Of a DNA stretch of 64,000 bases, positions 5,395-62,336 are shown in pieces. Location of the stretch: contig NW_024468542.1 of NCBI RefSeq assembly GCF_001632365.1, positions 344,627-408,626 of the forward strand, written 5' to 3'. The number at the start of each line of letters is the position of its first letter. The stretch's first letter is position 1. The translations under genes were made by a program, and so were the position numbers. The notes under the pieces are model-generated. The model worked only from the letters and a program-made list of their open reading frames with translations, had not been told where the DNA came from and ran no database searches. This DNA comes from Laetiporus sulphureus 93-53. Lineage: Eukaryota > Basidiomycota > Agaricomycetes > Polyporales > Laetiporaceae.

Positions 5395-6146
5395 TCAGGA
5401 AAACGGCTTCGCGATTGCTCCAGCGCGGGGCACGCCTGGCACGTCTGCCCGCACGCCGATCATAGCAATGTCTTTGCACTGAATGCCCATTAGCAGACAA
5501 GGCGACAACGAGGTGTGAATCGAACTCACATTAGCAGCCGTCGAGGTTGCCTCTTGAGACCGCCTTTCTAACTCGGTGGCTTCTCCCAGCGATTGTTCAT
5601 TGACATGAACATGGGCCATAGTCTGCGGCTTCGAACTCGCAAATAGCTTGGTCTCTTGCCCCGAGGAAGTCGCATCCTCGATGCCATGTTTGTTGGGCAA
5701 TTCCATCTGCACGTACGTTAATATATTGTCCGCTCATGTATGTTGATAAAGAACTCACCATGCCTCTAAGAAGCCTTTTGCTAAACTCTGCATTAATGTG
5801 CTGCTCTCTCTCCTTCAATAAGTCCAGAAGGCCTACTTGCAGCTCGGGGGATTGTCGCCTTTGCAGTGGCCGGTCGATCACACCAGGACCGGCTTCATCG
5901 TGAAATGTCTTGATGACCACGGTAAGCACACAGGATAATACGGACGTGTCATGGCTGGTGAACTTACTTGTTTACCCTCATGGGCCGTATATCTCTGTGT
6001 GTTTGCATAGCCAGTGTTGCTGTAATCGTATACAGTCGTGAACCGAAGACGGGGTGGAGCGATCGGTTGCTTGTCGTGCGACAGATGCTCTTTACGTTCA
6101 ATGGCGGTAGTGTTGTCGATACCGAGTCCTTTGAGGGAGTATCCAT
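5395..6146 (-). pseudogene. array-family member beta-1, start-proximal frameshift
   Basis: Exon 1 (6146 down to about 5967) codes in one frame for LSHDKQPIAPPRLRFTTVYD and ends NTQRYTAHEGKQ, in phase with the conserved intron GTAAGTTCACC. Exon 2 is 5908-5759 (SPELQVGLLDLLKEREQHIN, a charged helix), exon 3 5706-5530, exon 4 5478-5395 ending in stop. The ATG at 6146 (MDTPSKDS) is out of frame with that exon-1 frame: compared with beta-2 one base is missing just after AAAGGA. Either the gene is dead or another start is used. The other exon joints keep phase 0. Function unknown. The first 12 bases of the gene match beta-2 exactly, so the duplication is recent. Confidence 0.5.
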
Positions 6147-6642
6147 TTGTATGGTCGAGATACGGCTGAGAATGTGGCGCGTTATCGAAGCTGGATGATG
6201 AGCAGAAGGCGTGTCAAATAGGTATTGTCAGTATGTCGCGTATCCCCATCCAGCTTGTATACCAACTAACATTAATTATCCTCTGCAGGTGCTGAGTGGA
6301 AGTTATGATGAAGGAGGACGCGACGCAAGAGAGCGAGGAAGACACGTTGGCGTTGGGCGCCAAATCCGCCTTGTCCGACTTAGGCTATCGAGTGGCAACC
6401 ACTCATGGAGGGGCCCTCAATTTTCGCGCAATATGGTATCATTATGAAATAACATGTACTGGGATACGATGGTATGTTCTACTTATGACATTGGAACGCC
6501 GGACTAATATGTTTTGCAACTCTTTTGCGAACATCAAATGTTTACCGACATTTCATTGCAGCCTTCCTTCCCGTCTGTAACTAGTCATCATGCGATCGTT
6601 CTCCTTCCGTATATACGTCGCCTCTCGAATCTTGGCGGCGTA

Positions 6643-7408
6643 CTATGCTGTCTCTCGGCTGTTCTCTGATCCGGAGACCTTGTCCTCGATATCCTGCAGG
6701 CAATGAGACATTTTGTACAACTTCAAGCGTTCGATATCACTAACCATGGTACGAATCCTTTTCGTGGGCCTGAGACGTACGGGGCCTTGCTCCGACCATT
6801 TTCCATGGCGCATCGTCTCCGGTTGCGAGGTCGTCCAAAGGGAGTCATCACCAGCTCTATTCATGAAGGCTTGTGCGTCCTCCTGCTTCAGGACCACGAC
6901 TTTCCCGTCCATATCTCGGTATCCCCACTTGCCATGTAGGATACTATCATATGACTGTCGGGCAGGATTCGGCTGGGGCATCATCATCAAGATGGGATGC
7001 AGTCGTAGTTCGCCATGTTCATCATTGGCGGTTTGCTCGCCATCCCCGTCAACTGATTCGGCCCATTTCCAATATTGTTCCCCGGCTTGCAAGGACTTGT
7101 CTTCGGCAAGCGTGATCCAAGATGAGCAGGTGCGGTGTGTCCAACCGCCGAAGTCCTGATCCATTCGACGGTGAGCGCACAGAATGACGCGGACATTGAA
7201 TGCTGACCTGATTAACGGGAACGCCGTCTATGTTCGTGTGATTTTGTGTATTCATAAAGGCTTGTGTGTCGGGACTCTGTTGATCATCGACCTCCGGATC
7301 CCCGTCGTCGCCCCAGTCGATCCATCGACTGAATGATGGCATAGGCGCGTCTCCCTCATAATCCACTGACAAGGTGCTCAACGTGCTCTCCATTCGAGGA
7401 GTGGCCAT
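6643..7408 (-). CDS. array-family member alpha-1
   Basis: Two-exon model, 237 aa. Exon 1 7408-7208 (67 aa, MATPRMESTLSTLSVDYEGD, acidic, ending FMNTQNHTNIDGVPVNQ) joins in phase 0 to exon 2 7155-6643. The latter begins DFGGWTHRTCSSWI, then has a Trp-rich stretch (YWKWAESVDGD), the family's proline motif LRLHPILMMMPQPNPARQSY, the block ILHGKWGYRDMDGKVVVLKQ, and the basic cluster RLRPTKRIRTMVS. The ATG at 7408 is chosen because alpha-2 starts at the same place. The exon 2/3 intron seen in alpha-2 is missing here together with the flanking codons, but the frame is kept. A GTTAGT...TGCAG stretch near the end could be one more intron. No known domain recognised. Confidence 0.6.
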
Positions 7409-7620
7409 AGCGAACTTCAAGGCCTGATCGACTAGATGACGAGTGGCAACGCGACCGAGGTGAACAACGTGAGCAACAGACAGATGTCACGCCCGGGCCT
7501 ACTGTCTAGCGTGTCGCAGAAGGCAAGCGAAGATGATCGACAAGCAGACGTCGAATGCGTGGCTTTTATGCTTGTGGTGAGTGGGCAAGTGGAACGAGTC
7601 AAATCGGACATGTTGATGGC

Positions 7621-7640
7621 CACTAACGCGTCTGTGGCGG
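7621..7640 (-). promoter_or_regulatory. array-family upstream element (alpha-1)
   Basis: CACTAACGCGTCTGTGGCGG, about 215 bases before the alpha-1 ATG. It matches the element seen before zeta, eta and epsilon genes. Confidence 0.5.
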
Positions 7641-9122
7641 CCATCATGCTCGCTTAGGGATACATCAAATTTGGAGTCTTGGATTGAGAAAAGCTAGCGA
7701 AATGTATATATATTGTGAGTGCCTTAAAAACTATGTGACCGAGACGATGTAGTAGACAAAATCTGTTCAGATGTCTCGCGAACATATTGAAAGGCCCGCT
7801 CTTCCTTCCACCCTTAAACAGCCGCTCGCAAACGGTTGATTATCCTTTCATGGCGGCACACATTCTCCCCCCCCTCGTTGTCGTCGTCCAGCATCATCTC
7901 CGAAAGTGGTGGCAACTCAGTGGCTGAGCCCACAAGTCCGCCCAACAAGGCCACTTCGCGTTCATGCGCTCCTTCCAGTTCATCCAGTCGATAGCCAAGG
8001 TGGCACTATGGTGCTCATTATCGGTTTCCCAGGAGATGCCCTTTCCGTTTCAGACCGTGCCAGCTACACGAAAATGGCCGCACAGCGAGCACGGACTTCA
8101 ATACACGATCTCGTAGCGATCCTTCTGCTTCGTTCTGACATGGTTTGACAGCTTGTCTCGCTGGCTGAGATTTACCTTGTCGGTCGTTTGTGGCGATGGC
8201 GTACCAAACAATGACGCTCACTTACGTGACTCGTTATGGACCATTGGAGGTATCATCCACTCATTCCGGAACAGGAGGTTGTCTATGTGTCGGTGATGGC
8301 AGCTGTTAGACGGCTCCGTAATGAAGAGTCTCCGTGAGAAATGCTACAGCAAGGGTTTATCCAGATACTGGCGAACTCAGCGTAGATACCCCAGATTGTA
8401 GTTGTCTTAGTACTTGTCATGTTGAAATAAACTTATCACAGAATCTACCTTTAATCATCAGTGGATAGGGCCACATCGGAGCCACAGGCACCATAATTGG
8501 CTATTGTAACGCTCAGCCTTGCAACGTCAACCGTCTCGAGTCACTGCTCCTGTTGAAGTTCGTCCAGGATGACAGGGATACCTTGCTCGCCTTGCCGTGT
8601 TCTCCTTGTAGTCTGCTCGTCTCAAGGCCCTGGAACTCGGCTTCGCGAAGGATAGTACTACGCTCACGATGACAACGGTTCCGTGCAGGCGCGTAGTTGG
8701 TCGTGCAGGCTGTCTCATCGACGACGAAGCGGACCTCGCGTTGTCCAATGCATCAAATTACAGCGCAGCATACAAAGACGATCAAGTCACATCCTTACTG
8801 TCAACATTAACCCGCTAACTGCCTTCCTTCCATTCCTTGTGTCCCGCCCTACGCCTTTCCATCCGCCTGCATCCATTGTGATCGCTTGTTGCTCGGAAGA
8901 TCATGCCGCACGGACGGAGATGTTGAAGGGGAGGAAGTATGGTTGTGGTGAACGAGATTGGGAAATGCACTTCGACTCTTGGTTCAAGGAAATGACTTCG
9001 TGGTTGCTCCTGGGCGGGGCACGCCTGGCACATCTGCTCGTACGCCGCTCATACTGATGTGGTTGCCATGGACATTCGTTAGCAGACAAGGCGAGAATCA
9101 GATTTGAACTGAACTCACATCA
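7641..9122. other. intergenic, repeated sequence
   Basis: Upstream flank of alpha-1 (paired with 15960-16480 in copy 3), then from about 8190 the 3' flank of beta-2 (paired with 4600-5200 and 12720-13260). On the minus strand around 8000-7930 a short frame with WMNWKERMNAKWPC has a counterpart at 16350-16270 (ISWKEQVDAKWSWWEELW); it could be a stray exon of this family, but I cannot place it in a gene. Confidence 0.4.
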
Positions 9123-10050
9123 TCAGCCGTCAAGGCTGCCTCTTGGGACCGTCTCCACCTCGTCGGCGTTATCCAGCGCTTGTCCATTGGCACAAGCGCA
9201 GGGCACGGTTTGCATCTCTGAACTCGCCAGTAGTTCAGTCTCTTGCCGCGAGGAAGTTGCGGCCTCACTGCGATGTCCGTTGTCCACCTTTTTCTGTACG
9301 CATGTCTATATATCGTCCGTGCTCATGCGTTGCCTTATAACTCACCGTGCCACTAAGAAGTCTCTTCCTGATTTCGGCATTGATATGCCTTTCCCTCTCC
9401 ATCAACAAGTCGAGAAGGCCGACTTGAAGCTCGGGCGATCCTCGCCTCAACAGCGGCCGGTCGATCACTCCAGGATCGGCTTCGTCGCGAAAAGCCTTGA
9501 CAACTACGGTAAGCGCACAGGATAATACGGATGCATCGTGGCTGGTGAACTTACTTGCTGACCATCGCGGGTCGTATTACTTTGTGCACTTTCGTAGGCA
9601 GCCTTGCTGTAATCGTATACGGTCGTGAACCGAAGACGGGGTGGAGCGATCGGCTGCTTGTCGTGCGAGAGATGCTCGTTACGTTCGATGTCGGTGGTAT
9701 TGTCGAGATCGAGGTCCTTTGAGGGAGTATCCATTGTATGGTCGAGATCAAGTTGAGAATGTGGCGCGTTGTTGCAGCTGAACGATGAGAGGAAGCGTGT
9801 CAAATAGAGGTATTGTCAGTATGTCGCGTATCAACATCCAGATTATATACCAACTGACATTATGTGTTCTCTGAAAGTGGCCAGTGGAAGTTATGATGAA
9901 GGGGGACGCGATGCAAGAGAGCGAGGAAGACACGTTGGCGTTGGGCGCCAAATCCGCCCTGTCCGACTTAGGCTATCGAGTGGCAACCACTCAGGGATCG
10001 GCCTCAGCCTTCGCGCAATATGCTCTCATTGTCAAATAATATGAACTCGA
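8180..10050. repeat. alpha/beta segmental duplication, copy 2 (beta part only)
   Basis: Aligned by eye with 4600-6450 and 12720-14460. It stops after the beta upstream region, where copy 1 and copy 3 continue into alpha. Confidence 0.65.
9123..9734 (-). CDS. array-family member beta-2
   Basis: The best preserved beta gene: exons 9734-9555, 9495-9346 and 9293-9123, all phase 0, 166 aa. Exon 1 starts MDTPSKDLDLDNTTDI, contains PIAPPRLRFTTVYDYSKAAY and ends SAQSNTTRDGQQ. Exon 2 codes for a charged helix (LQVGLLDLLMERERHINAEI). Exon 3 is Ser/Glu-rich and stops at LDG. The acceptor before exon 2 (GTCAAG) was chosen because it keeps the frame. Compared with beta-1, exon 3 has a 2-base difference that brings in the stop earlier. 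No signal peptide or known domain; short for the family. Confidence 0.55.
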
Positions 10051-10261: not shown

Positions 10262-11297
10262 TCAGCACGCGCATTCTTCGGCCAGCTTGCCCTCCATACC
10301 CTGCAGCCGGTTCAAAGACTCCTTGGCCGGCTCCAAAGCATCAACATCAATCCCGTTCCGCATGACACGAGGCACCGTATGGCATTGGAGGATAGACGAC
10401 GGGGAAAGTCGGGAGGCAATAGTCCTGTTGGGACTGCCGGTGTTGTAAGCTTCCTCGCGGTTATCGAGTCGCTGATTGATCCTCTCTCTGATTGGAAACT
10501 CGCAAGAGGAGGAGGACAAGGACGAAGACGAGGAGAACCGGCGATTGGGAGCCCTTTGAGAGTTGCGACGTCCGGAGCTGTACGCCCCCTCACGATAGTT
10601 GCACTGCCATTCGGCAGACGGCCTGCCGTAGGAGTCGACGGTCTCAGGGTTCTACGAGCGTTGGTCAGGCGTTGCTCTCATCACACACACCGTGCGGCTC
10701 ACCGATGCCGTTATAACCTCAGCCGCGAGATCCTGGGCTTCTACTTCCACCTGTCTTCTGCACATCTCTACAAGGTTGAATGCAACCGCCATTTGCTCAC
10801 CTCTCAACAAGAGACGCATGAACTCGACTGGCGGAAGGGCCGTCTGGACAAGTTCGCCACCAACCTAGCCATGATATAAGTGCATCAAACGAATGACCTT
10901 CGAAAACAAGGCAGCCTACCATGCTGTAGAAGGATGTTCTATTATCCCTGACAGGCACGATGCATTTCCATTCCATTTCATCGCCCAGCGGTTCTGCTGA
11001 TTCAGTATCGGAAGCTACCTGTGGCGTAGGTCGGATAGTTGGATGTCATATGGTGAGTGCACAGATTAACACGGATAGAGTGGTTGGCTGACTTACTGAT
11101 TGGATTTCGTCGTTCAACTCGTCCGTGTTAATTTGTGTATTCTTCAGAGTAAAGGTGTTGTAGGCGAAGGAAGTAGTCCGATGACCACATGCAGATTCTG
11201 ACAGCTCCGGACGAGGCTGTATGATGAGAAGAACGTATGGTAGTTTTTTGAGTAACGCATTGCGTGCTCTTTTCAAGAACTTGGAACCGAAGGCCAT
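10262..11297 (-). CDS. array-family member gamma-1
   Basis: Clean four-exon model, all phase 0: 11297-11097 (67 aa), 11018-10920 (33 aa), 10864-10703 (54 aa) and 10651-10262 (129 aa), 283 aa in all. The N-terminus is basic then hydrophobic: MAFGSKFLKRARNALLKKL followed by PYVLLIIQPRPELSESACGH. Exon 3 carries ELVQTALPPVEFMRLLLRGE, the family proline motif. Exon 4 starts with SAEWQCNYREGAYSSGRRN, has a Ser/Arg-rich middle and ends in a helix with LNRLQGMEGKLAEECAC. Every exon has a clear partner in gamma-2 (38991-40048). The N-terminal stretch could be a membrane anchor or an amphipathic helix; it does not look like a standard cleaved signal peptide. Function unknown. Confidence 0.7.
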
Positions 11298-13592: not shown

Positions 13593-14191
13593 TCAGCCGT
13601 CGAGTTGGGACTGTCTCTTCATTTTGGTGGCTTTGTCCAGCGATCGTCCGTTGGCCCGAACACGGAGCACGTTCTGCGGCTCCGAAATCGCAGACAGATT
13701 GGCCTTATCCTCCGAGGTAGTTGGATTCTCAGTGCCATGTCCGATGGGTACATCGGTCTGTATGTACATCTGTATATTATGCGCTCTCATATGTTGATAT
13801 CTGACGCACCGTGGCATTGCGAAGCCTTTCCTTATTCTCTGCATGAATTTGCTCTTCCCGCTCCTTCAAGAGGTCAAGAAGACCCACTTACAGCTCGGGG
13901 GAATGTCGCCTCTGCAGTGGTCGGTCGATCACTCCGGCTTCATCATGAAATGCCTTGACAACTATGGTAAGCACACAGGATATTACGAATACATTGTGGC
14001 TGGTGAACTTACTTCGCGACCGTCATGGGCCGTATTGTGCTGTGTGTTTGCATAGGCAGCCTTGCTGTAATCGTATACGGTCGTGAACCGAAGACGGGGT
14101 GGAGCGATCGGCTGCTTGTCGTGCGAGAGATGCTCCTTACGTTTGGTGGCGGTGGTATTATTGAGATCGAGGTCTTCGAGAGAGTAGCCAT
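13593..14191 (-). pseudogene. array-family member beta-3, start-proximal frameshift
   Basis: Exon 1 (14191 to about 14012) has the beta frame PIAPPRLRFTTVYDYSKAAY and ends NTQHNTAHDGRE. Exon 2 contains SPELQVGLLDLLKEREEQIH. Exon 3 starts MYIQTDVPIGHGTEN and stops at LDG (13593). The ATG at 14191 (MATLSKTS) is one base out of frame with the beta frame, at a different place from the lesion in beta-1. An 8-base gap in exon 3 relative to beta-1 produces the early stop. If no in-frame upstream start exists, the gene is not functional. Confidence 0.45.
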
Positions 14192-14865: not shown

Positions 14866-15745
14866 CTAGATGAAGACATCGAGGCACCTTCCTGGACGGC
14901 CACTGCCTCCGTTCTTGGCATATCGGGGTAAATTGTGAATAGAGCTCGCAGCGCTGTGGGCAACGTTTGATGAAGCTTGCAAGTGTTCGACATCACTGAC
15001 GATGGTGCGAACCCTTTTCGTAGGCCTGACACATATGGAGTCTTGCTCCAACCGTTTTCTGTGGTGCATGGTCTCCAATTGGGAGGGCTTCAAAGGGTAT
15101 CTCCGCCAACTCTATTCATGAGAACTTGTGCCTCGTCCTTTCTCAAGACCACGACTTTCCCATTTATATCTTGGTATCCCCACTTGCCGTGTAGGATACT
15201 GTCATATGACTGTCGGGCAGGAATTGGCTGAGGCATCATAATCAGGATGGGACGCAGCCGTAGTTCGCCCTGTTCGTCATTGGTTATTGCCTCGCCAGAT
15301 GCCTACAACGAAATGAGTATCGCAGCAATCCACGAATTCTTCTAGACTCACGGCAGCCCAATATTCTACGAGATTTCTATCCCCATCAACCGATTCGGTC
15401 CATTTCCACCACTGTTCCGCGGCTTCCAAGGATTTGTCATCGGCGGGCATAATCCAAGGAGGACAGGCACGATGCTTCCAACCACCGAAGTCCTGATTCG
15501 ATTCACGGTGAGTCCACAGAATGATGCGGACGTTAACTGCTGACCTGACCAATGGGAACACCGTCTGTGATCGCCTCACTCTGTACACTCATGAAGGATT
15601 GTGTGTCGGAGATCTGTTGATCGTCCACGCTCGGGTCCGGGTCATCGCCCCAATTGATCCATTCATTGAAGGACGGCGTGGGCGCATCTCCTTCATAATT
15701 TACTGACAAGGTGCTCAATTTGTTCTCCATTAGAGGAGTGGCCAT
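14866..15745 (-). pseudogene. array-family member alpha-2, frameshifted
   Basis: Exon 1 15745-15545 (67 aa, same length as alpha-1, MATPLMENKLSTLS), exon 2 15492-15352 (47 aa, DFGGWKHRACPPWI with WWKWTES), exon 3 from 15302 (ASGEAITNDEQGELRLRP, then MMPQPIPARQSY and ILHGKWGYQDINGKVVVLR). At the point matching alpha-1 DSLWTT one base is missing, so translation ends at TGA 15092-15090. The family-like frame resumes after it with CVRPTKRVRTIVSDVE and stays open to 14866. A 1-base deletion in an otherwise well kept gene suggests recent loss, unless an intron removes the lesion. Confidence 0.55.
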
Positions 15746-40899: not shown

Positions 40900-41544
40900 T
40901 CAGTTCTCGCTTCGTCGTTGAGTTCGGTTCCTGGAGAGGAAGGTACGAACCACACCTTGACCCTTCTTCTGCCTGGCATGCTCGATTGCAACCCGCCTCT
41001 GTTCTACGATCGCATATGCGGCCATGAAGTCGTAGGCCAATTGCGCGTGCTCTAATTGACGAGTGGCAATGCTAGTGCTGGAGCTGCTTTCCGACGATGC
41101 TATGGTCAACGATGTTTGATCACTCTGGGTTTATTATCAGTATGTGTATTGTGTTGGTTTCGTCTAGCACGGAAAGCTCACCATCGGCTCCTCGCTCTCG
41201 TCCTCGATGCGCATTTCCTCTCCGCTGCCCCATTCCGAACCGTTCGTGATAGGCACTGCGAAGTTATCGGCAACAAAAGCGTTGCCGTACGCATTGAAGT
41301 CGTATCCAAATTGATCGAGCTTGGGAATGTGCACGGTGAGCACGCAGGCGGCTACGGACTAGTTGACGTTTACCTGACTTCCGAGGTGATCGTTCTCGAT
41401 CGTGTCTGTTTGCGTGTTCACAGGCGCGAAAACCTGCGTGATTGTGGATGATTCCTGGTGATTCACTCGAGCGACGCGTGGACGGCGACGAAGTCGACGT
41501 ATGGCACGCTTCATGGCAGTCACAGTGGTTCTGAAGAGGGACAT
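40900..41544 (-). CDS. array-family member (41 kb), helical tail
   Basis: Three exons, phase 0: 41544-41374 (57 aa), about 41328-41191 (46 aa) and about 41121-40900 (74 aa with stop). Exon 1: MSLFRTTVTAMKRAIRRLRR, then ITQVFAPVNTQTDTIENDH. Exon 2 is acidic: NAYGNAFVADNFAVPITNG, EEMRIEDESEEPM. Exon 3: a Ser-rich start followed by a long charged helix (RQLEHAQLAYDFMAAYAIVE, RVAIEHARQKKG) and a basic end. It lacks the proline motif of exon 3 in other members and is the shortest three-exon form, so it is either a diverged lineage or a 3'-truncated copy. Confidence 0.5.
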
Positions 41545-46565: not shown

Positions 46566-47702
46566 TCACCGTCGGGCGCGTGTCACCTGTGGCAGCGTCG
46601 GACCTCTAGTCTGTGGATCGCAACTCGTTTCGTAAATGATGACTCCGTCCAAGGCAGTGTTGGTGGGGATATTACATGTTGGTGAGGGTCGGGACTGCGC
46701 TCGCCTGCTCCGTGGACTGTCTGGATGGACTAGCTGTCCGTGCTCATGTGGTCGCATATGGAATCTCCGGGACTGAAGGTGATGCGCGCTCTCCTCGCAA
46801 CAGATACTGCAGCAACGACGACGACGGCTGGTCATCATGGGCTGCAGAGGTTGGAGGCCGGTGAAGAAGATGTTCTGCGGGCAGCACGCCGACTCGACGT
46901 AGAGCACCTTGCCCAGGTCTCCGAGGGAGTCTATGGAGGTCTTCTTGGAGAGTCCTGTGGCACGTGTCCTGGAGGGAGCGGAGCGTGTGGCTGCCCTTCG
47001 CCGTGCCCTGTCTTTAGTAGACTTTATGGGGGTGACAGTGTCCTTTGGTGGGAGGTGAGCTGTCTGAATGCGTGTGCGGTGGATGGTTTGCTTACTGATG
47101 CTGAGGCCGCTGTAGTCGTTGTTCCTCCCTCGTTCCGGCCCGGCGCCCTTGACCACTGCTCATCTTCCTCGGGAATGTTGCGCAGGAGTGGCTCTGGGAG
47201 CGGTACTGATGACATCGCTGCTATCATTTCTCGAGGGTCCTCGATGGGAGGTGATAATTTGGTGGTCGGTTCTAGTGACTGTGCCACCCGTTAGCCATCC
47301 TGAAGACAAGCACTCTGCATGCTGCCTCACGTACCCGCGGACTTAGTTCAGTCGTCACCATCTTACGTCGAAAGTTGATGCGGACTGGGATGTGCTTCGG
47401 TGGTGTTCCCGTGTTTCCGATATGGAGCTGAGGTGCCGATCGGGCAAGGACCTCGACACGGCCACTACCACCACTCTGGTCCGCTTTAGTGATCTTCTAA
47501 CAAACAGTGAGCATACAGGCTTTAACGGGTTTGTCGGTTGACTCACTGACCGTCCGCGTTCATCCGTTTTTGTTTGTGTGCTCATAGACTCCATAGAGCC
47601 GGATGCTGTAGCAGACTGAGGGTTGTTTTGATAGACTCCGGGTTGATATTGTGCCACACGTTGAATGGTGGTCCAAGTTCTGGATAAGAAGCCGATGATC
47701 AT
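46566..47702 (-). CDS. array-family member delta-2
   Basis: Clean four-exon model, phase 0: 47702-47547 (52 aa), 47475-47335 (47 aa), 47278-47096 (61 aa), 47042-46566 (158 aa); 318 aa. Exon 1: MIIGFLSRTWTTIQRVAQYQ, ending QTKTDERGRS. Exon 2 is basic: SGRVEVLARSAPQLHIGNTG, HIPVRINFRRKMVTTELSPR. Exon 3: LSPPIEDPREMIAAMSSVPL, LLRNIPEEDEQWSRAP. Exon 4: DRARRRAATRSAPSRTRATG, SLGDLGKVLYVESACCPQNI, and a Cys cluster RRRRCCSICC. GCTAAC in intron 2 is a textbook branch site. Long antisense frames over exon 4 (plus strand 46740-47294) are shadows. Function unknown; the basic tail may be nuclear. Confidence 0.68.
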
Positions 47703-49636: not shown

Positions 49637-50113
49637 GCCGGTCGCCGGAGGTCCTGAAACGTTGGCCAGCCAGGTGAATGTGATGCGTGGCGCGTCGACG
49701 AAAAGGATGGGCTGGTAGCAATGGGAGGTACGCGGACCCTCTTTCAGGCAACGAGGCAATCGTTCGCGACAAACGCTATCGGTCGGTGAGGGCCGTAATG
49801 GTCACAGTACGTCGTTCTGGGAATGGTCGAAGTAGAAGGAGAACGAAAACAGTGCCATCCAAACACGTTGTGTTCTGGCGCCTATGCGCTTGCGGCGAAG
49901 GTGCCACAGTTTGGCCAAGCAGGCTGGGCTGGAGTTCAGCGCGGTGATGTTCTTTGACTGGATGAAATGCAAAGTTGGTGGGCATATTCGCACTCATCAA
50001 ATAGATCGAGCTCATTTGAGTAATTCACAGCTAGTATACGAACATTATTGGCTATTGATCATACGTCTCGACACCTTCCAAAGCTGGCGCTGGCCACACC
50101 CTCCTGGTGAAAT
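49637..50113. other. intergenic with upstream element
   Basis: GGCGCCTATGCGCTTGCGGC at about 49878-49897 matches the eta-2 element. No gene seen. Confidence 0.5.
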
Positions 50114-51243
50114 CTATATGACACTATCATCTGACGATCCCTCAAAGTCATCTCCAAGCAGATCTCTGATCTTTCGATACAAGAGCGTGATTTCCAGCTC
50201 GCTTTCTGCCAATCCCTCTGCGCATGACATACGTCGTTTGGGCGGCGATCCTGGGCCTCGAATTTGAGTCTCGTCGATACCGGTACCGAGCTCTTTGTCA
50301 CCATCGGAAAGCGACGTCGTTGCTGCGGAGGTGCTGCTGGCGGACTCATTGATCTTCTGCACGTCGTGCTCCCAACGAACGATCCTGTTTAACTCGGACG
50401 TGTTGCGCAATTCTTGGAGCTCCTGAGCAAACGTTAGATTCGGAGCTGTGGACGTCTAACGAAGGCAGGAAGAAGTTCATTCACTGTCACCGGCCACAGA
50501 ATCCGAGCATGGTGCTTACCGCATCTTCCAGCTGGCCAACAGAAAATGTTTCTGGTACTGGAACGGCAACTTCTTTATGATGACGTGGCGTCTGAAGACA
50601 TTCGTCAACAATACGCCTTGGACAAAGCACGTAGTCCATCACACACCTCAGGTTGGCTCAGCACGGCTACTGCCGTGTTCCGTTTGGAAGTGTGCACCTG
50701 TTGGAAGTCCCAGTTGCCTTCGATAATGGTACTGAAGCTCTCGCGAGGCCTGGTGGCAGTGGGCATGTGTAACTGGACCGTTCGCGGGGGCATCTTCTGC
50801 CATGTAGCAGACGGGTAGCCGACCCATCCTTCCTGTCAACAATCAAGTCAGATTAGTCTGGCTGCACACTGCGCTGATAACACGTACTGCCTGGTGCCAC
50901 CTCACGTAGTTCTCATCATCGTCAACCTCGCTCGCCCATGCCCAGTAGCGATCTCCCAGGTACCAGTCCCTCTTCCATTCCTCTGGGGCGGTTTCCATCC
51001 ATACCAAGTGGGCCCACTCGTCTTTGGGCTGCATTGCATAGGTAAGCACGCATAACAACACGAACGTCGTCGACTTGGCTCACGTACCACTCCGTTGTCG
51101 CCCGTGTTGGAATGTGTTCTTATAAGGCTCTCATCGTCGCTGAAGTCCTCGATATCTGCTGGGGACTCGATGTAGCCAAAGCTGTCCCAGGAATCTGGGG
51201 AGTCAGGTGGCTCAAAATCGTTTTCAGCAGCGTGGTTGTCCAT
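50114..51243 (-). CDS. array-family member zeta-1
   Basis: Five exons, phase 0, 298 aa. Exon 1 51243-51088: MDNHAAENDFEPPDSPDSWD, IEDFSDDE. Exon 2 (47 aa): PKDEWAHLVWMETAPEEWKR, DWYLGDRYWAWASEVDDDE, NYVRW. Exon 3 (62 aa): EGWVGYPSATWQKMPPRTVQ, LHMPTATRPRESFSTIIEGN. Exon 4 (24 aa): acidic linker VPVPETFSVGQLEDA. Exon 5 (113 aa, ending 50114): FAQELQELRNTSELNRIVRW helix, then SSTSAATTSLSDGDKELGTG, KRRMSCAEGLAESELEIT, ending DDFEGSSDDSVI. The Trp-rich exon 2 and heptad-like exon 5 are the most domain-like parts of the array. Nearly every exon matches zeta-2 in length and register, so the protein is probably still selected. Confidence 0.72.
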
Positions 51244-51473: not shown

Positions 51474-51497
51474 AGCGCTAACACGTCTGTGGCGGTC
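51474..51497 (-). promoter_or_regulatory. array-family upstream element (zeta-1)
   Basis: GAGCGCTAACACGTCTGTGG followed by CGGTCGAACC, about 230 bases before the ATG. Confidence 0.55.
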
Positions 51498-51559
51498 GAA
51501 CCATTGTTCGGCCACTGGCACATGGGAAACGTGTTCCGTTGTCATGTGAGGGTCTGAGA

Positions 51560-52470: not shown

Positions 52471-52517
52471 ACAACATTCAAACGCGCCGCATGACAATGC
52501 GTTGTAATCAAGCCCAT

Positions 52518-53621
52518 CTAACTGGCAGTAGTGTCGGACCTCATGTTGGGATCGCAGCTCGTTTCGTAGATGATGACTCTGTCAAAGGCAGCATTGGTGG
52601 GGATACATGTTGGTGAGGATCGAGCCTGCGGTCGCCTCACCCGCGGACTTTCTGGATGGACTAGCTGCCCGCTCTCCCGTGCTCGCATATGGGACTTCCG
52701 GGACTGGTGGTCATGTGCGCTCCCTTCGCAACAAGTACTGCAGCAACGACGACGACGCCTGGTCATCATGGGCTGATGAGGTTGGAGGCCGGTGAAGAAT
52801 ATGTTCTGCGGGCAGCACGCCGACTCGACATAGAGCACCTTGCCCAGGTCTCCGAGAGAGTCTATGGAGGCCTTCTTGGAGAGCCCTAGAGTACGTGTCC
52901 TGGAGGGAGCGGAGCGTGTGGCTGCCCTTCGCCGTGCCCTGTCTTTAGTAGACGTTATGGGGATGACAGTGTCCTTTAGTGGGAGGTGAGCTGTCTGAAT
53001 GCGTGTGCAGTGGATGGTTTGCTTACTGATGCTGAGGCCACTGTAGTCATTGTTCCTCCCTCGTGCAGGTCCGGTGCCCTTGACCATTGCTCATCTTCCT
53101 CGAGAATGTTGCGCAGGAGTGGCTCTGGGAGTGGTACTGATGACATCGCTGCGATCATTTCTTGCGGGTCTTCGATGGGAGGTGATAACCCGGCGGTTGG
53201 TTCCAGTGACTGTGCCACCCGTTAGCCATCCTGAAGACAAGCACCCTGCATGCTGCTTCACGTACCGGTGGAGTTAGGCCACTCGTCACCACCCTACGCC
53301 GAAAGTTGATGCGGACTGGGATGTGCTTCAGAGATGTTGCCGTGTTTCCGGTATGTAGCTGGGGTGCCGATCGCGCAAGGACTTCGACACGGCCGCTGTC
53401 ACTCTGGACTATTTTGGTGAGCTTGTAACAAACGGTGAGCGTACAGGCTTTAACGGGTTTGTCGGTCGGCTCACTGATCGTCCGTCTCCATCCGTTTTTG
53501 CTTGTATACTCATAGATATGGTAGCAGACAGAGAGTTGTCTTGACGGGCGCCGACGCGGTATTGTGCCACACGTTGAATGGTTGTCCAAGTTCTGGTTAA
53601 GAAGCCAGTGATCATGGACAT
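52518..53621 (-). CDS. array-family member delta-3
   Basis: Four exons, phase 0: 53621 (or 53615)-53475, 53403-53266 (46 aa), 53209-53027 (61 aa), 52973-52518 (151 aa); about 305 aa. Exon 1: MITGFLTRTWTTIQRVAQYR, shorter than delta-2 by a small in-frame gap. Exon 2: SDSGRVEVLARSAPQLHTGN, HIPVRINFRRRVVTSGLTPP. Exon 3: LEPTAGLSPPIEDPQEMIAA. Exon 4: RARRRAATRSAPSRTRTLG, LGKVLYVESACCPQNIFF, RRRRRCCSTCC. The ATG at 53615 matches the delta-1 and delta-2 starts. TTATAAA about 150 bases upstream may be a TATA box. Closest to delta-2 among the three copies in exons 2-4. Confidence 0.65.
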
Positions 53622-54992: not shown

Positions 54993-55786
54993 TCATTCCA
55001 AGGTTCTGTCATCTGGTATGGGTGGAAGGTAGACGAGCAGATTAGAGCAGCTCAGGGGTTCCACGATGGTGCGCACCTTCACAGGCGATTTTGGAGCTAT
55101 GGCATTCATTGTCGAGTGTGCTCCGCAGGTCGCCGACTACGTCCGGACATTGATCACCCCCGCGTCAATATTCTATTCCGCTCAGCACTCAAAATGAGAC
55201 GCACCTGTGTCTGACGTGTTACTACGACCATGCCTGCTGTATCCTGGTATCCCCAGTCCCCGTGAAGGATCTGTTCAAAGTCCTCGCGAGGAGGCATAGG
55301 TCGTGGCATCTTGAGTTCGACCGTCTGCGTTTCTAATGCAACCGGACCCTCAGAGGACTCGGAACCACTCGCTCGCGTCTGCGAAAATGTAAACAAAGCA
55401 ATCTTGGAAGAGTAATCGTGGAACTTGCGACCGTGTCCCGGCTCGCATGGACTCCGTGCTCGTTGGTCCATCTACGCCACTCCTGGAACCACTCTTCATA
55501 CAAACGTAGACATGGCTCAAGCCACGGTGGCACCTGTGGTAACTGGGAAGCATTTCATCCGGTGAAATTTGGTAATAGACGGTAAGCATACAGAATGCCA
55601 CGGACATTGTCAAGCCGGCTAACTCACCGATCCACTGTTCATGACCGTGCCACTTTGTACGCTTGCAGAGTTTTCGATGACGCCTACTTCGTTTGCGTTC
55701 GTATAAGTTCTGTCTTCGGGGAAATCCTCTGGCGACCGGTTGAATGGCCGAAAGGATCGAAGCTCTATCCAGATTGCCTTTAACAT
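54993..55786 (-). CDS. array-family member eta-2
   Basis: Four exons, phase 0: 55786-55628 (53 aa), 55542-55432 (37 aa), 55378-55205 (58 aa), 55136-54993 (47 aa); 195 aa, the smallest four-exon member. Exon 1: MLKAIWIELRSFRPFNRSPE, ending VQSGTVMNSGS before GTGAGTTAGCC. Exon 2 is Trp-rich: LPQVPPWLEPCLRLYEEW, FQEWRRWTNEHG. Exon 3: TVELKMPRPMPPREDFEQIL, HGDWGYQDTAGMVVVTRQ, the same block as alpha HGKWGYRDMDGKVVVL. Exon 4: KSPVKVRTIVEPLSC, parallel to alpha RPTKRIRTMVSDI. This member ties the alpha group to the delta-zeta block by shared motifs. Donor of intron 2 (GTCGCA) is weak. Confidence 0.65.
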
Positions 55787-56024: not shown

Positions 56025-56048
56025 TGGCGCCTACGCGCTTGTGGCGGC
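56025..56048 (-). promoter_or_regulatory. array-family upstream element (eta-2)
   Basis: GGCGCCTACGCGCTTGTGGC, about 245 bases before the ATG. Confidence 0.5.
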
Positions 56049-56256
56049 GGTGCCACATTTTGGCCGAGCAGGCCAGATTTCAGGGCCATAATGTATTCTG
56101 ACTGGAGGAGCTTCAAGTCGGTAGGCCTATTCGCCCTCATTACATTCGATCGAGCTCATTTGAGCAATTTACAGCTAGTACACGAACATTCTTGCTATCG
56201 ATTTCACGTCTCGAGACACACCAGAGTCGGCGTTGCCCACATTATCCTGGTGAAAT

Positions 56257-57385
56257 CTATGCGACATCGTCGTTCGATGGCCCCTCAAAGTCGTCCCCAA
56301 GCAGACCTTTGATCTCTCGATACAAAGACTTGATTCTCAGCTCACTTTCTGCCAATTCCTTTGTGCACGACGCACATCGTTCGAGCGGTGATCCTGGGCC
56401 TCGAACATGAGTTTCGACGATACCGGCGACGTCCTCTTCGTCACCATCGGAAAGGGACGTCGCTGCTGTGGAGATGTTGCCAGCGGACTTGTTGATCCTC
56501 TGCATGTCCAGCTCCCAACGAGCGGTCCTGTTTAACTCAGACGTATTGCGCAATTCTTGGAGCTCTCGAGCAAATCTTGCATTCGGAGCTGGGGGCATCT
56601 ACCGAAGGAAGGAAGAAGTTCATCCACTGTAATTGGCAGCAGAATTCGGGCATGATGCTTACCGTCTCTTCCAGCTGGCCAGCAGAAGAATTTTCCTTTG
56701 GTGCAGGAATGGCCATCTCTTCATGATTACGTGTCGTCTGAAGACGTTCGTCAACTATACGCCTTGGACACAGCACTTAGTTCACCACATACCTCAGGCT
56801 GGCTCAAGACGGCTACTGCCGTGTTCCCCTTCGAAGTCGGCACCTCTTGGAGACCCCAGCTACCTTCAAGGATGGTATTGTAGCATTCACGAGGCCTGGT
56901 GGCCGTGGGCATGTACAACGGGACCGTTCGCAGGGGCATCTCCCTCCACGTAGCGCCAACCCATCCTTCCTATCGACAACGAAATAAGATTAGCGTGGCT
57001 CCACGCTCTGCGGATACCACATACCGTCTGGTACCACCTCACGTAGTTGTCGTCATCGTCGACCTCGCTCGCCCATGCCCAGTACCGATCTCCCAGGTAC
57101 CAGTCCCTCTTCCACTCCTCTGGGACGGTTTCCATCCATGCCAAATGCGCCCACTCGTCGTCTTTTGGCTGGGTCGTATAGGTAAGCATGCATAATAACA
57201 TGACACCATCAACCTGGCTAACGTACCGCTCCGTTGTTGTCGTACATGTAATCGTGTGTGCTTGCAGTGCCCTCATCGTCGCTGAAGTCTTCGATATCCG
57301 CAAAAGACTCGATGTAATCAGAGCTGTCCCAGGAATCTGGCGAATCAGGTGGCTCGAAGTGCCTCTCAACGACGTGATCGTTCAT
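56257..57385 (-). CDS. array-family member zeta-2
   Basis: Five exons, phase 0: 57385-57227 (53 aa), 57168-57025 (48 aa), 56969-56793 (59 aa), 56737-56663 (25 aa), 56598-56257 (113 aa); 298 aa, identical in length to zeta-1. Exon 1: MNDHVVERHFEPPDSPDSWD, FADIEDFSDDEG. Exon 2: DDEWAHLAWMETVPEEWKRD, WYLGDRYWAWASEVDDDDN. Exon 3: EGWVGATWREMPLRTVPLYM, TATRPRECYNTILEGSWG. Exon 5: ARELQELRNTSELNRTARWE, MQRINKSAGNISTAATSL, ASCTKELAESELRIKSLYRE. Small in-frame gaps relative to zeta-1 compensate in length, and no stop or broken splice site is seen. Likely acidic N-terminus, Trp-rich core, coiled C-terminus. Function unknown. Confidence 0.73.
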
Positions 57386-57611: not shown

Positions 57612-57635
57612 GGGCGCTAACGCGTCTGTGGCGAT
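57612..57635 (-). promoter_or_regulatory. array-family upstream element (zeta-2)
   Basis: GGGCGCTAACGCGTCTGTGG followed by CGATTGAACC, about 230 bases before the ATG. Best example of the consensus. Confidence 0.6.
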
Positions 57636-57837
57636 TGAACCACCGTTCATGCACGGGCACATGGGAGACGCGCCCCGTTGTCATGCAAGGGTCTGACAAA
57701 AAAACGATCTGTTTCAAGCAAACACAATAACGATTCGTCTACATAAACGCAGGACAATGTAGATGAAAATGACTGTTCGATGCACATTCTGCTTCGAGCC
57801 CTTCGCCCTGGACTCCCGCTCTAGTCGTTACCTCTCC

Positions 57838-58974
57838 TCACAAGCAGCGCGATAAAATTGCCTCCCTTTCCTTCTTCCGCTCCTCCAATGCCTTTTTGGA
57901 CTGTTCGCGGGAATGATGTACGCGTTTCGTCATATCCTTCAGGGCCTCGAGACAGGCAGCAAGCTCCTCAGCATCATCTTCGTAGTCATCTCTGATGGAG
58001 GACGCGAAAGTGTCTGATGTGGACGCCATGGTCGAGCATGGTGAATCGCAGCTTGGGTCGAGAACTGCATTATAAGTGCGGAGGATATTCTCGAGCCTCT
58101 CCAGCCTTTGGCAAATGTCCGCGATCATCAGCTTCGTCCAAGTCCTCCGAGTCTCCTTCGGAAGAGTCGATAGCAGGTGGTACTCTTCGACGTCCTCCTC
58201 CATAATGCTGGGAGCGAGTTCGGCGCGGCACAAAGTAGGCGAAGAGGCGTCTGAGTCTGAGCTCTCCGTTGTGTTCACTATTCGCAGCTCATGCTGAACG
58301 GGGGCAGCAGGGCTTTCATCGGAATAGTTTGCGGAAGAATATAGGTGCTGTGAACGCAGACTGGTCATTATCAACCCGAGGTCCACGATGCACGGCTAAC
58401 TGACCCATAGACTGAAGCTCTCCGTCTTACCGCTGCGGCATGACTGTTGGCCGTTGGTCGAATCCGTGGTCTTGTCTGCCGGGCATCCGCTTTCACCATT
58501 GACTTGCATCTCATGTATCTTCTCAATGGGAGGAAGAATGGGAGCAGCGAGATTACCATTGACCTATCGGCATGTCAGTCATGGTGTATAGTCGAAAGTT
58601 GGAGTGTGACTGACCAAGTTGTAGGATGCCACGGAGTCAAGAGAGTCTTCAACATCTCCTGCCCAGGACGATGCATCACCGTGGTGTTTGTCTAAGTACA
58701 GGAGATCCAAGTACTGAGCCGGTCAAAGGAAATGTAGATGGATACATTGCTCTGGTAAGCACAGTTATCATTACAAAGATGGCATCGGCTGACTTACGGA
58801 TTCCTTGTCCTTCTTTGTATTGATAATTGTGCTAGTGAAAGCGGCCGTCTCGAAGTCGCCTTGATGGCCAGTGCCGTGGCCCGGTAGGTTGGGGTGGGGT
58901 TTCACTATCATAATTATGAAAGGAACCTTGCGCTTGAAGGCCGCTCGAGCCCGCTTCACGAAGCCTAGGATCAT
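57838..58974 (-). CDS. array-family member theta
   Basis: Exon 1 58974-58798 (59 aa): MILGFVKRARAAFKRKVPFI, IMIVKPHPNLPGHGTGHQGD, ending NTKKDKES before GTAAGTCAGCC. Exon 2 58713-58615 (33 aa): DKHHGDASSWAGDVEDSLDS. Exon 3 from 58563: VNGNLAAPILPPIEKIHEMQ, the proline motif. Exon 4 (about 58395-57838): SSANYSDESPAAPVQHELRI, SDSDASSPTLCRAELAPSIM, EYHLLSTLPKETRRTWTK, CQRLERLENILRTYNAV, and a C-terminal helix ALKDMTKRVHHSREQSKKAL, EERKKEREA. The exon 3/4 joint is not resolved: the obvious GTAAG...TTAG gap is only 35 bases and does not keep phase. The charged C-terminal helices suggest coiled-coil pairing. Confidence 0.6.
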
Positions 58975-59728: not shown

Positions 59729-60240
59729 CTAATCGTTTCCTCCCTTCACAGGCAGCCGATAAACTGCCTTTCTTTCCTTCTTCCTCTCCTCCAGCACCCT
59801 TTTGGATTGCTCGCAAGACTGATGTACATGTTTCGTCATATCCTTCAGTGCCTCGATACAGGTAGCAAGCTCCTCGGCATCATTTTCGCAGCCAACTCGG
59901 CGCGAGAGGCCGGACGTGGTACCAGAAAATAAAATGCCAAGATTCCTCACATAGACGAGGTGGCCGAGGATGACGAGCCGCAGTCTGGTCCGAGAATCGC
60001 ATTGCGTGAAGAGGATGTTCTCGAACCTCTCCAGCTTTTGACGGATATCGGCGATCATTAGCTTCATCCAAGGGCTCCAGGCTTCTTTCGGAAGAGTCGC
60101 TGACAAGCGATACTCCTCAATGTCCTCTTCCATAGCGTGGTAGGAAGCTCGGTGCATCAGAAAGTAGGGGAAGAGGCATCCGAGTTTGAGCTTCTGGTGG
60201 CGTCCATTGCATCCTTTACCCGCAGCTCATGCTGAGCGGG
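59729..60240 (-). pseudogene. theta last-exon fragment 2
   Basis: AQHELRVKDAMDATRSSNSD, SDASSPTF then, after a break at about 60157, AMEEDIEEYRLSATLPKEAW, KLMIADIRQKLERFENILFT, ELATCIEALKDMTKHVHQSC, EERKKERKAV. This is theta exon 4 in two frames with an internal stop; exons 1-3 are absent. Orphan exon like the one at 51.6-52.5 kb. Confidence 0.55.
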
Positions 60241-61318
60241 CATAGCACGGAAATGAAACAACTGAACAGGCCGATGATGCTGTCCCCGCAATAATAGTGG
60301 AGGCATGATGGTTGCGTGCCCGTGAATCGACGAGCCCATAGCGTGGCGCTCATACATGGCTGCCGTATTCGAGTAGTTGCCGATCCAGGCGGGCAAGACA
60401 CAACGGCTTACAGTAGCCTCCTTCGTAAACGGGTCGTCGGTGAGCAGCATCTCGTCGTCTGGCCTACCAGCGATAACGGGAACTCGTGGTGAAACCAGGA
60501 GGGCGATGCTGCGGCCACAGCAGAAAGCGACGAGGCAGGTGAGTCGGATGCTCCCGGGAGCGGCCCTTCAAGACTCTTGGGAAATACCATGCTGAGCGTG
60601 TGGCTCATCTCAAGCAGCGCGAGGAGTGAGACAAGGTGTTCCGTCTCCTCAAGGAGGCCGAAGGGGAGGCCGCGGTGGGGATGGCCGCCTTGAACCGCGT
60701 GAGCTTTGCCATCTGGGATAGGCGGACAGAGGCATGGAAGGCGTGGAGGAAGGAGGAAGGAGGAAGGAGGAGGCGGCTAAGATGCCGCAGATGTCGCCAC
60801 GCCTGCTGCTGCTAAGGCAGGAGTCGGATGATCATGTTGAGAGTGAAGTCGTCAAGTGTCGCTATGAAGAGGATGGCCGTTGATTCTGAGCAGCCGTTGA
60901 AGGTCCGGAGGAGCGGGCCCTTGACGTCGACCGCGAGGCGTCCTATAGAACATCGCACTCAACTATGTTATCTCACCAGCAAGTATTAGATCGCTCACAA
61001 TGTAAATATAAGCGCCTGGCCTGTTACCGAGATCTTCGAGGCGGTGGCATCCACGCGCGAGTGTGACCACCGCCACAGACGCGTTGGTCGTTGATCGTTG
61101 GTGTCCGCCACAACGTGTTCGACTCGCGTTATTTGGTTCCAGTGGCACTTCAACTTCCGACTCGAATATAAAGGCGGTCGTATCCCGGCTCTTCTGCTTA
61201 CTCTTAATCAGCTCCGCCGCTCTTTTGCACCGCGCAGACTTTTGACTATAGAGTCTTCGTTTTTTGCCTCTGTTACTTAGGCCCTCCCCTGTCACTCAAT
61301 TGCGCATACAACTGAGCC
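60241..61318. other. epsilon-2 upstream region, duplicated; G/A-rich repeat
   Basis: 60450-60960 pairs with 27470-27960. Plus-strand frame pieces include VFRLLKEAEGEAAVGMAALN and SFAIWDRRTEAWKAWRKEE, preceded by VAHLKQREE and a stop; they may be the tail exon of a lost family member (epsilon has MAAVAHLKEAS). A GGAAGGA run lies near 60750-60775. The upstream element (GACCACCGCCACAGACGCGT) is near 61064-61083, with ATATAAGCGCC near 61006. Confidence 0.45.
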
Positions 61319-62336
61319 ATGGCCACTTATCCTATGGAGTGCGACGATAACACCACGTTGGTGAACCCGGAAATCGATCACCGCAGGGTCGTGGCATCCC
61401 CAACCCAGTGGAGCGACGAGTCGGACTCGTGGTTCGATGATGAGCAAGGATTCGATGCAGAGACCTTTGCAAGTGCACAACACGAAACGTTCACGGACAG
61501 CGACTCGGTACGTCAGCTCGCCAATCAATGTCCGTTTCATCCTGTGCACTCACCAATACATAATACAGGATTCCGACAACACGGACTACTGTCGCCTGTG
61601 GAGGCGCATTAGCCCCACTCCGCCTGCCAACCTCGAACAACGGATTTTGGACTGGAAGAGCCGGACTGATGAGGAAGGGAATTATGTGAGCAGGTGCCTT
61701 GTGGTAAGTTTCTGTAGTGGGCACGCACTCTCAATGATTCTGATGATTCATGTCCTGTTAGACGAGCTGTACAAGGGTCTTCATGGACAGGTCCGGCAAC
61801 CCCATGATGTACATGGACGGTTCGCATACTGTCCGGCTTATGATGCCCACGCCGATCCCGCCGCCAGAGTCATCCCATGCCTTACGGAAGGGACTGTGGG
61901 ACTGTCATGTAGTGGATGGCCAAGTGGTTATCACACAGCACACTTCAGAGGAAGCAGGATCCCTGGGGCCTAAATATGTTGATGCGGAAAGTCTATCTAG
62001 AGTTTCTCGCATGAAGGCGTCCGACAGCAAAAGGGTGAGGCGGGTTCCTGTCGGACCAAGGCCTATGAGGAGGCAATCCACTTTGGTGAGTCTTACATGC
62101 TGTTTTGGACGTCCTGGCAATTACTTACCGCATGCTTTAACTCTTCTCTGCTCATGTCACCGATCGTGACCCAGGGTATGTGCTCCAAAACCTCTGCTAC
62201 ACAGGAAGAATACAGCATGGCCGCCGTGGCTCACCTGAAGGAAGCATCGGAGTCTATGTGCAACAGTGCTGCCGATCCCATCCTATGGTGCTCTGAACGT
62301 CAAGCGCTACCGCCGGCTGTCATGCAGTGGTGGTGA
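61319..62336 (+). CDS. array-family member epsilon-2
   Basis: Plus-strand twin of epsilon-1. Exon 1 61319-61507 (63 aa): MATYPMECDDNTTLVNPEID, ESDSWFDDEQGFDAETFASA, ending TFTDSDS before GTACGTCAGC. Exon 2 from 61569: DSDNTDYCRLWRRISPTPPA, LDWKSRTDEEGNYVSR. Exon 3 (about 61790-62085): MYMDGSHTVRLMMPTPIPPP, LRKGLWDCHVVDGQVVITQ, SDSKRVRRVPVGPRPMRRQS. Exon 4 62175-62336 (53 aa): MAAVAHLKEASESMCNSAAD, with an indel that changes the last about 30 residues relative to epsilon-1. The exon 2/3 joint has the same weak donor as epsilon-1. The first ATG is intact here. Looks translatable. Confidence 0.6.

What the first reader, a model, noticed from the sequence alone, without database searches (positions are those of the whole stretch)
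5395..62336. A dense array of one unrecognised, hypervariable gene family fills most of the window
About 21 gene-sized copies and six fragments share a four- or five-exon phase-0 plan, exon sizes (about 60/40/58/140 codons), intron 1 sequence, an upstream element and a proline motif in exon 3, but almost no overall protein identity between subgroups. This is the pattern of a fast-diversifying, birth-and-death family such as effector or recognition genes. I recognise no known domain in any copy. Seen: structure and motifs. Inferred: common ancestry of all groups and any role.
Basis: partly seen in the sequence, partly recalled or inferred. Interest (0 to 1): 0.92.

Follow-up and report, generated by a model that had tools for sequence, protein, structure and literature searches.

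The report
Mushroom gene array with shared foldback
In a wood-rotting mushroom, two stretches of chromosome are studded with dozens of copies of one nearly unannotated gene family whose proteins have drifted almost beyond recognition, while a mirror-image DNA element across the first splice site has stayed largely matched in copy after copy, which gives a testable clue to how such families are held together or controlled.

Summary
The observation largely holds. The window ends contig C33 of Laetiporus sulphureus 93-53. A covariance model finds 20 copies of one exon 1/intron 1 element here, 6 in the adjoining 20 kb, none significant in 187 kb of control. Genome-wide, 54 of 57 intron-motif hits and 40 of 54 upstream-element hits lie on contigs C33 and C34. 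A core subfamily (B, E, H, I, relatives) has the exon 3 proline motif; its exons look constrained (dN/dS 0.15-0.39 in 11 of 12 pairs), though some copies are broken. Nine models have no Pfam family above cut-off. New: the end of exon 1 and intron 1 are inverted copies; 13 of 17 pairs show double changes, covariation 0.357 against 0.165 shuffled. This supports common ancestry of groups whose proteins do not align. Wobble pairs are not favoured, so a DNA palindrome or template-switch upkeep rivals an RNA splicing hairpin. The effector reading is unsupported: no membrane-like segment in seven models, no positive selection seen, and mating-type genes lie on other contigs.

The parts
5395..6190 (-). 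group A copy 1, gene-finder model; its ATG is not secure
5921..6007 (-). A1 exon 1/intron 1 inverted-repeat element
   Evidence: cmsearch R1 E 1e-16
7208..7408 (-). B1 exon 1
   Evidence: phase-0 model
6745..7155 (-). B1 fused exons 2-3 with the proline motif
7170..7256 (-). B1 inverted-repeat element
   Evidence: R1 E 1.6e-17
7620..7643 (-). B1 upstream element
   Evidence: PWM 29.9
9123..9734 (-). group A copy 2, three-exon gene-finder model
9508..9594 (-). A2 inverted-repeat element
   Evidence: R1 E 1.4e-17
11052..11145 (-). K1 inverted-repeat element (K-type gene, exon 1 about 11097-11297)
   Evidence: R1 E 3.8e-10, not in training
13966..14052 (-). A3 inverted-repeat element
   Evidence: R1 E 6.4e-16
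15545..15745 (-). B2 exon 1
15352..15492 (-). B2 exon 2
15093..15302 (-). B2 exon 3 (conserved part)
15507..15593 (-). B2 inverted-repeat element
   Evidence: R1 E 2.5e-17
20858..20942 (-). g21 inverted-repeat element
   Evidence: R1 E 3.9e-10, not in training
26325..26405 (-). D1 inverted-repeat element
   Evidence: R1 E 1.6e-8, not in training
28050..28073 (+). E1 upstream element
   Evidence: PWM 29.7
28310..28483 (+). E1 exon 1 (copy broken downstream by frameshifts)
28444..28530 (+). E1 inverted-repeat element
   Evidence: R1 E 1.4e-20
28745..29062 (+). E1 exon 3 reading frame with the proline motif
32804..32886 (-). g33 inverted-repeat element
   Evidence: R1 E 8.4e-9, not in training
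39812..39905 (-). K2 inverted-repeat element
   Evidence: R1 E 3e-4, not in training
41335..41422 (-). g41 inverted-repeat element
   Evidence: R1 E 1.5e-9, not in training
44068..44154 (-). g44 inverted-repeat element
   Evidence: R1 E 1.8e-18
47506..47586 (-). D2 inverted-repeat element
   Evidence: R1 E 2.7e-8, not in training
49878..49901 (-). upstream element of the H1 fragment; no inverted-repeat element found behind it
   Evidence: PWM 24.8
50114..51243 (-). I1 gene: exons 51088-51243, 50888-51028, 50647-50832, 50520-50591, 50114-50422
   Evidence: highest-scoring family model of the strict gene finder
51041..51124 (-). I1 inverted-repeat element
   Evidence: R1 E 2.1e-12, not in training
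51475..51498 (-). I1 upstream element
   Evidence: PWM 35.1
53434..53514 (-). D3 inverted-repeat element
   Evidence: R1 E 3e-7, not in training
55205..55360 (-). H2 exon 3 reading frame with the proline motif
55581..55667 (-). H2 inverted-repeat element
   Evidence: R1 E 7.6e-21
56027..56050 (-). H2 upstream element
   Evidence: PWM 34.0
56257..57385 (-). I2 gene: exons 57227-57385, 57025-57168, 56793-56969, 56663-56737, 56257-56598
57181..57266 (-). I2 inverted-repeat element
   Evidence: R1 E 2.1e-12, not in training
57614..57637 (-). I2 upstream element
   Evidence: PWM 35.6
58754..58837 (-). K3 inverted-repeat element (K-type gene; the reading frame 57838-58395 is probably its C-terminal part)
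   Evidence: R1 E 6.7e-7, not in training
61067..61090 (+). E2 upstream element
   Evidence: PWM 32.6
61334..62085 (+). E2 gene, exons 61334-61507, 61569-61703, 61762-62085 (end of exon 3 and later exons not settled)
61468..61554 (+). E2 inverted-repeat element
   Evidence: R1 E 2.9e-21

Best explanation
The window is part of an array of one Laetiporus gene family whose motif hits span about 290 kb of contig C33 and 330 kb of C34. The core groups encode small soluble proteins with an acidic N-terminus, probably a small beta-rich module in exons 2-3, and a variable tail. The array grows by segmental duplication, and some copies have been lost by frameshift. The groups most likely descend from one ancestor, since they share an aligned exon 1/intron 1 element. 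That element is an inverted repeat of about 20-nt arms: one arm lies near the end of exon 1, the other lies in intron 1 and ends at the branch-site motif, and the 5' splice site lies near the centre. I think it most likely acts in the pre-mRNA as a foldback that controls use of the first splice site, for example by toggling between the short intron and an in-frame longer one that removes the whole foldback. The pairing and its covariation are shown; the splicing role is inferred.
For: Element in 20 window genes and 6 in the adjoining 20 kb; in 187 kb of control DNA the best hit is E 1.1. In 31 of 33 genes tested the best register gives 14-19 of 23 pairs. Over 17 pairs and 31 sequences, 84.1% of cells pair against 73.0% shuffled, 13 pairs have double changes against 7.9, covariation is 0.357 against 0.165, each 0 of 500 shuffles; further pair types are not above shuffles, 26 against 25.1. 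Own arms beat arms permuted between 12 groups, 16.8 against 14.6 of 23, z 5.4, 0 of 2000. Among the 19 sequences of 87 nt, the stem register scores 1.95 and the best other register 0.80 (1035 windows). Base-level constraint on coding sequence: the majority Thr codon is ACG in 12 of 12 groups (genome 0.34) and the third base is A in 11 of 12 (genome 0.20). dN/dS 0.15-0.39 in 11 of 12 pairs supports real coding exons. Genome-wide, 54 of 57 intron motif hits and 40 of 54 upstream hits are on C33/C34. The public protein LAESUDRAFT_715756 is reproduced by an in-frame 128-nt intron that encloses the whole element.
Against: G-U pairs are depleted as much as A-C and other mismatches (z -3.2, -3.7, -3.6), which does not look like an RNA stem. 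Within group E the exon arm decays while the intron arm stays nearly constant. Single-gene folding z-scores run from -5.4 to +0.8 (33 genes). Ordinary introns reach 15 or more pairs in 29 of 127 cases, against 30 of 33 family genes, so no single gene proves the foldback. L010a and L010b, 2 of 33, do not fit the register. There are no transcript data. The public alternative intron may be a gene-finder artefact; its donor scores 2.57 against 5.88 for mine. Outside the core, groups A and D share no convincing protein alignment with the rest.
Confidence: 0.42

Rival explanations
1. The inverted repeat has no function of its own: template switching during DNA replication keeps correcting one arm against the other, so arms stay Watson-Crick matched as genes diverge.
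For: Covariation favours Watson-Crick pairs only and is strand symmetric, G-U not tolerated. The process is described for RNA hairpins (PMC8794818, abstract seen) and for coding inverted repeats (PMC8604942, listing only). Uncompensated decay of the exon arm in group E.
Against: Some positions stay mismatched in most genes (column 13, A opposite C in 20 of 31), which repeated correction should erase. Intron 1 differs less than intron 2 in 10 of 11 pairs with both introns (pairs not independent). The intron motif itself is conserved as sequence.
Confidence: 0.28
2. The palindrome works as DNA: an internal binding or recombination site, for instance an internal promoter in exon 1/intron 1 that gives a second, shorter protein, as in wtf drivers of fission yeast.
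For: Strand-symmetric pairing; intron 1 more conserved than intron 2; wtf drivers carry a transcription-factor motif in intron 1 (PMC9562144, passages).
Against: A dimer site would not need the two arms to covary between groups. No shared ATG at the start of exon 2: E2 has no Met in exon 2. I did not look for recombination junctions.
Confidence: 0.17
3. The groups are not descendants of one gene: unrelated coding sequences were repeatedly placed behind a common 5' part (exon 1 end plus intron 1).
For: In one search group A has no link to other groups, and D only a 23-residue match to reading frame 51798-52517 (E 1.2e-4) outside its relatives; K copies link to each other. The upstream element is not seen in A, D, K or the g genes.
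Against: The element keeps its position at the end of exon 1 in the groups, and is 87 nt in 19 of 31 genes. K2's downstream exons contain IYPPPIEL, a weak look-alike of the proline motif.
Confidence: 0.15
4. Most of the array is dead: a graveyard of pseudogenes with a few live copies.
For: E1 and C33:201 kb carry frameshifts. The strict gene finder gives only 2 models above 5 in 64 kb, against 33 over 160 kb of control, though that control was its training set.
Against: dN/dS below 1 in 11 of 12 pairs, but only 11 intact or nearly intact copies were used, so this cannot speak for the rest.
Confidence: 0.12
5. Secreted effectors or a mating-type locus.
Against: No membrane-like segment in seven models. 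All five STE3 matches are on C87 and all five homeobox matches on C48 and C2.
Confidence: 0.04

Closest known systems
wtf meiotic driver family of Schizosaccharomyces (PMC9562144, passages read)
   Same: Dozens of multi-exon copies in a species with many pseudogenes; a cis-regulatory motif in intron 1 of some.
   Different: The wtf intron 1 motif is a Mei4 FLEX site; here the element is an inverted repeat reaching into exon 1. Drive, poison/antidote isoforms and FLEX sites were not tested here.
Structured splice-site RNAs such as the plant GRP7&8 and DEAD motifs (PMC12218528, passages read)
   Same: Covarying stem that overlaps or lies near a splice site.
   Different: Those sit in one gene or a few paralogues conserved across species; this one is shared by a large array in one genome, and G-U pairs are not favoured.
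Template-switch-maintained hairpins (PMC8794818, abstract read)
   Same: Inverted repeats kept complementary through double changes.
   Different: Described for RNA genes; here one arm codes for protein and the other is intron.
Stwintron and introner families of fungi (PMC12403724, PMC8469720; listing only)
   Same: Sequence-similar introns in many genes.
   Different: The listing says sequence-similar stwintrons typically sit at new intron positions; here one intron position, one gene family, one region.

Membership tests
Single gene family (all groups) | Homologous element at the same gene position in every group | tested here: met
   g33 and I2 are weak in the motif scan but match the covariance model
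Single gene family (all groups) | Alignable protein across all groups | tested here: not met
   B, C, E, H, I link; K copies link to each other; A does not join, D only by one 23-residue match
Core subfamily (B, E, H, I, C33/C34 members) | Exon 3 motif MPxPxP...GxW and purifying selection | tested here: met
   H was tested for the motif only
Covarying RNA stem | Double compensatory changes above shuffles and above other registers | tested here: met
Covarying RNA stem | Tolerance of G-U over A-C | tested here: not met
Covarying RNA stem | Known Rfam family | tested here: not met
   0 matches at gathering score in the window
Secreted effector | N-terminal signal peptide | tested here: inconclusive
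   hydropathy of seven models only: core models at most 0.39 over 11 residues near the N-terminus, K1 exon 1 1.61; no dedicated predictor was available
Mating-type locus | STE3 or homeodomain genes on the contigs | tested here: not met
wtf-like driver | Poison and antidote isoforms, spore killing | not testable with these tools
   no transcripts or crosses
Introner | Spread to many unrelated genes genome-wide | tested here: not met
   54 of 57 motif hits on C33/C34
Known protein domain | Pfam match above cut-off | tested here: not met
   nine family models; best sub-threshold E 0.031
Known protein fold | PDB sequence or fold match | tested here: inconclusive
   none; the model is weak overall (pLDDT 52.5)

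The most novel reading that the evidence does not exclude
A whole gene array is put under one splicing control: each member carries its own covarying foldback that joins the end of exon 1 to the branch site of intron 1, so one trans-acting factor could switch dozens of otherwise unrelated-looking genes, or allow only one at a time.
Probability: 0.2. Interest if true: 0.88.

Novelty: new variant of a known kind. Interest (0 to 1): 0.62.

Why it matters
Orphan families that diverge past recognition are hard to trace. Here a nucleotide element outlives the protein similarity and ties the groups together, so it can be used to find members that gene prediction misses: the protein search returned only two public proteins, although 54 places on C33/C34 carry the intron motif. 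The element is also a natural test of an open argument: are covarying stems kept by selection on RNA, by selection on DNA, or by template-switch mutation? Coding and intron arms in dozens of copies make that directly testable.

Tried and rejected
Mating-type locus: rejected by position of STE3 and homeobox genes. Known RNA family: none in the window. Phage-like origin: one block (49489-52335) gave no near match in the phage collection (a weak test). The first self-training of the gene finder collapsed to about one gene per locus and was replaced by a stricter one. A forced model scan gave splinters and was replaced. The short motif GTGAGTCAACC is barely above chance (4 hits, 1.24 expected); the real motif lies further downstream. 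An intron pattern with the wrong spacing gave one chance-like hit and was corrected. An inner stem around the splice site, seen in some single folds, did not stand out in the register scan. A wtf-like internal ATG in exon 2 is absent in E2. Fold search of the weak model gave nothing. A protein search with I1 alone found no protein; the family alignment found two. Names C34_316I and C34_314H were swapped and corrected.

Rows dropped: L010a and L010b were left out of the covariation counts because they do not fit the register; they still match the covariance model (E 4e-8 and 6e-8). Searches used the 19 of 31 sequences of length 87; the covariance model used 15 of 33. Groups D, K2, g21 and g41 stand above control in the motif scan only after retraining on window hits, not with the core-only motif; g33 does not in either. 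B1 entered dN/dS with exon 1 only. Literature searches for an existing description listed no paper on this array; PMC9602373 on L. sulphureus genomes was seen as passages only.

Full report
Where it lies. The window is G000:C33:344627-408626, the last 64 kb of a 408,626-base contig in a 38.6 Mb genome. A DUF6534 protein at its left edge is 98% identical to a protein of Laetiporus sulphureus 93-53, a polypore. The two public proteins that match the family are from the same strain; a search with I1 alone found none. Fungal coverage of that collection looks thin (the DUF6534 control gave four proteins), so absence elsewhere is weak evidence.

The array. Self-comparison shows nine sets of duplicated blocks at 68-84% identity and two short further matches. 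Reading frames of blocks B, E, H, I and C are linked by similarity. Using I1 as query, 18 of 18 hits in the whole genome lie on C33 and C34. A C34 member gave 24 of 25 on the same contigs, the other being E 0.196. A K-type query gave 23 of 23. The upstream element pattern gave 54 hits with up to two mismatches, 40 on C33/C34 (10 of 10 exact, 12 of 14 at one mismatch, 18 of 30 at two), against 3 for the reversed pattern. The intron motif with up to one mismatch gave 57 hits, 54 on C33/C34, against 2 for the reversed pattern.

Genes. A gene finder trained on 24 loci of other contigs recovered normal introns (median 55 bases, GTAAGT, CTGAY branch site), but it scores the family poorly: 2 window models above 5, against 33 over 160 kb of its own training loci. 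That may be why annotation missed them. In 11 curated core copies the introns between the exons checked are canonical and phase 0; E1 and the copy at C33:201 kb are broken by frameshifts. dN/dS is 0.15-0.39 in the 11 of 12 pairs where it is defined, two of them with dS above 2. So the exons checked look real and constrained; I see no sign of positive selection over whole genes, and I did not test single sites. Intron 1 differs less than intron 2 in 10 of 11 pairs with both introns.

The element. A motif built from core intron 1 sequences also occurs above control in A1-A3, K1, g44 and H2; retraining on window hits adds D, K2, g21 and g41. Its reverse complement lies about 30-43 bases away, at the end of exon 1. 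Folding shows a foldback in many copies, with z from -5.4 to +0.8. In 31 of 33 genes the best ungapped register gives 14-19 of 23 pairs; the exon arm encodes x-[TAV]-Q-x-x-T, with Q in 24 and T in 29 of 31. The register was chosen by complementarity, but it puts a Thr codon in the same columns in all 12 groups. Between groups, own arms pair at 16.8 of 23 and permuted arms at 14.6, z 5.4, none of 2000 permutations reaching it. Formal counting gives 13 of 17 pairs with double changes and covariation 0.357 against 0.165; the number of further pair types is not above shuffles. Shuffles do not remove relatedness, so I scanned all registers in the 19 sequences of equal length: the stem scores 1.95, the best other 0.80. 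Ordinary introns pair less (mean 13.6 against 16.5 of 23) but 29 of 127 reach 15. A covariance model then found 26 sense copies, 20 in the window and 6 in the adjoining 20 kb, with no control hit better than E 1.1 in 187 kb. Eleven of the 20 window copies were not in the training set.

What the element does. The 5' splice site lies near the centre and the intron arm ends in the branch-site motif. The public protein of one member is reproduced by a 128-base intron that encloses the element and keeps the frame, with a weaker donor than mine. This makes a splicing role my first choice. Against it, wobble pairs are as rare as mismatches, which favours DNA-level pairing or template-switch upkeep. 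I cannot decide with sequence alone. Third codon positions in the exon arm are constrained beyond the protein: ACG is the majority Thr codon in 12 of 12 groups (P 2e-6) and the third base A in 11 of 12 (P 1.7e-7).

The upstream element lies 367-397 bases before the inverted repeat in B1, E1, E2, H2, I1 and I2 and in part in B2. An 11-letter core of it, with up to two mismatches, lies 220-263 bases before the ATG in 11 of 11 curated core genes. Groups A, D, K and the g genes show no comparable match, and five further upstream elements have no inverted repeat at that distance.

The protein. Seven models show no membrane-like segment, and the first 60 residues of the four core models carry a charge of -10 to -15. 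AlphaFold2 on the public member gives low confidence overall (52.5); seven of the eight ten-residue blocks between residues 71 and 150 average 70-95, with six strands and one helix between residues 69 and 143, built from exons 2-3. No relative was found in PDB sequences or folds, and no Pfam family above cut-off in nine models. The biological role stays open.

Noticed in passing
window 9-1325: DUF6534 membrane protein gene at the left edge of the window
   Followed up: partly
window 2347-4466: Gene left of the array that looks like a GMC oxidoreductase (name recalled, not searched); the gene finder splits it, so it may be broken or mis-modelled
   Followed up: no
window 57838-58974, 51472-52150, 59530-60240: K-type genes with a basic first exon and, by eye, a coiled-coil-like C-terminal part, in repeated H-I-K blocks that also occur on C34 at 314-318 kb
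   Followed up: partly
L044 (C34:356 kb): Three consecutive 75-base exons with near-repeated sequence (RPRCFSKKVT...SSSK) at the 3' end of one gene-finder model
   Followed up: no
G000:C15:174552-174574: An exact match to the intron 1 motif outside C33/C34; a possible outlying member or chance
   Followed up: no
window 6389, 9977, 14434: Group A carries its own conserved upstream sequence GGTTGCCACTCGATAGCC about 390 bases before the element
   Followed up: partly
window 62600-64000: The last 1.4 kb before the contig end shows no covariance-model hit
   Followed up: no
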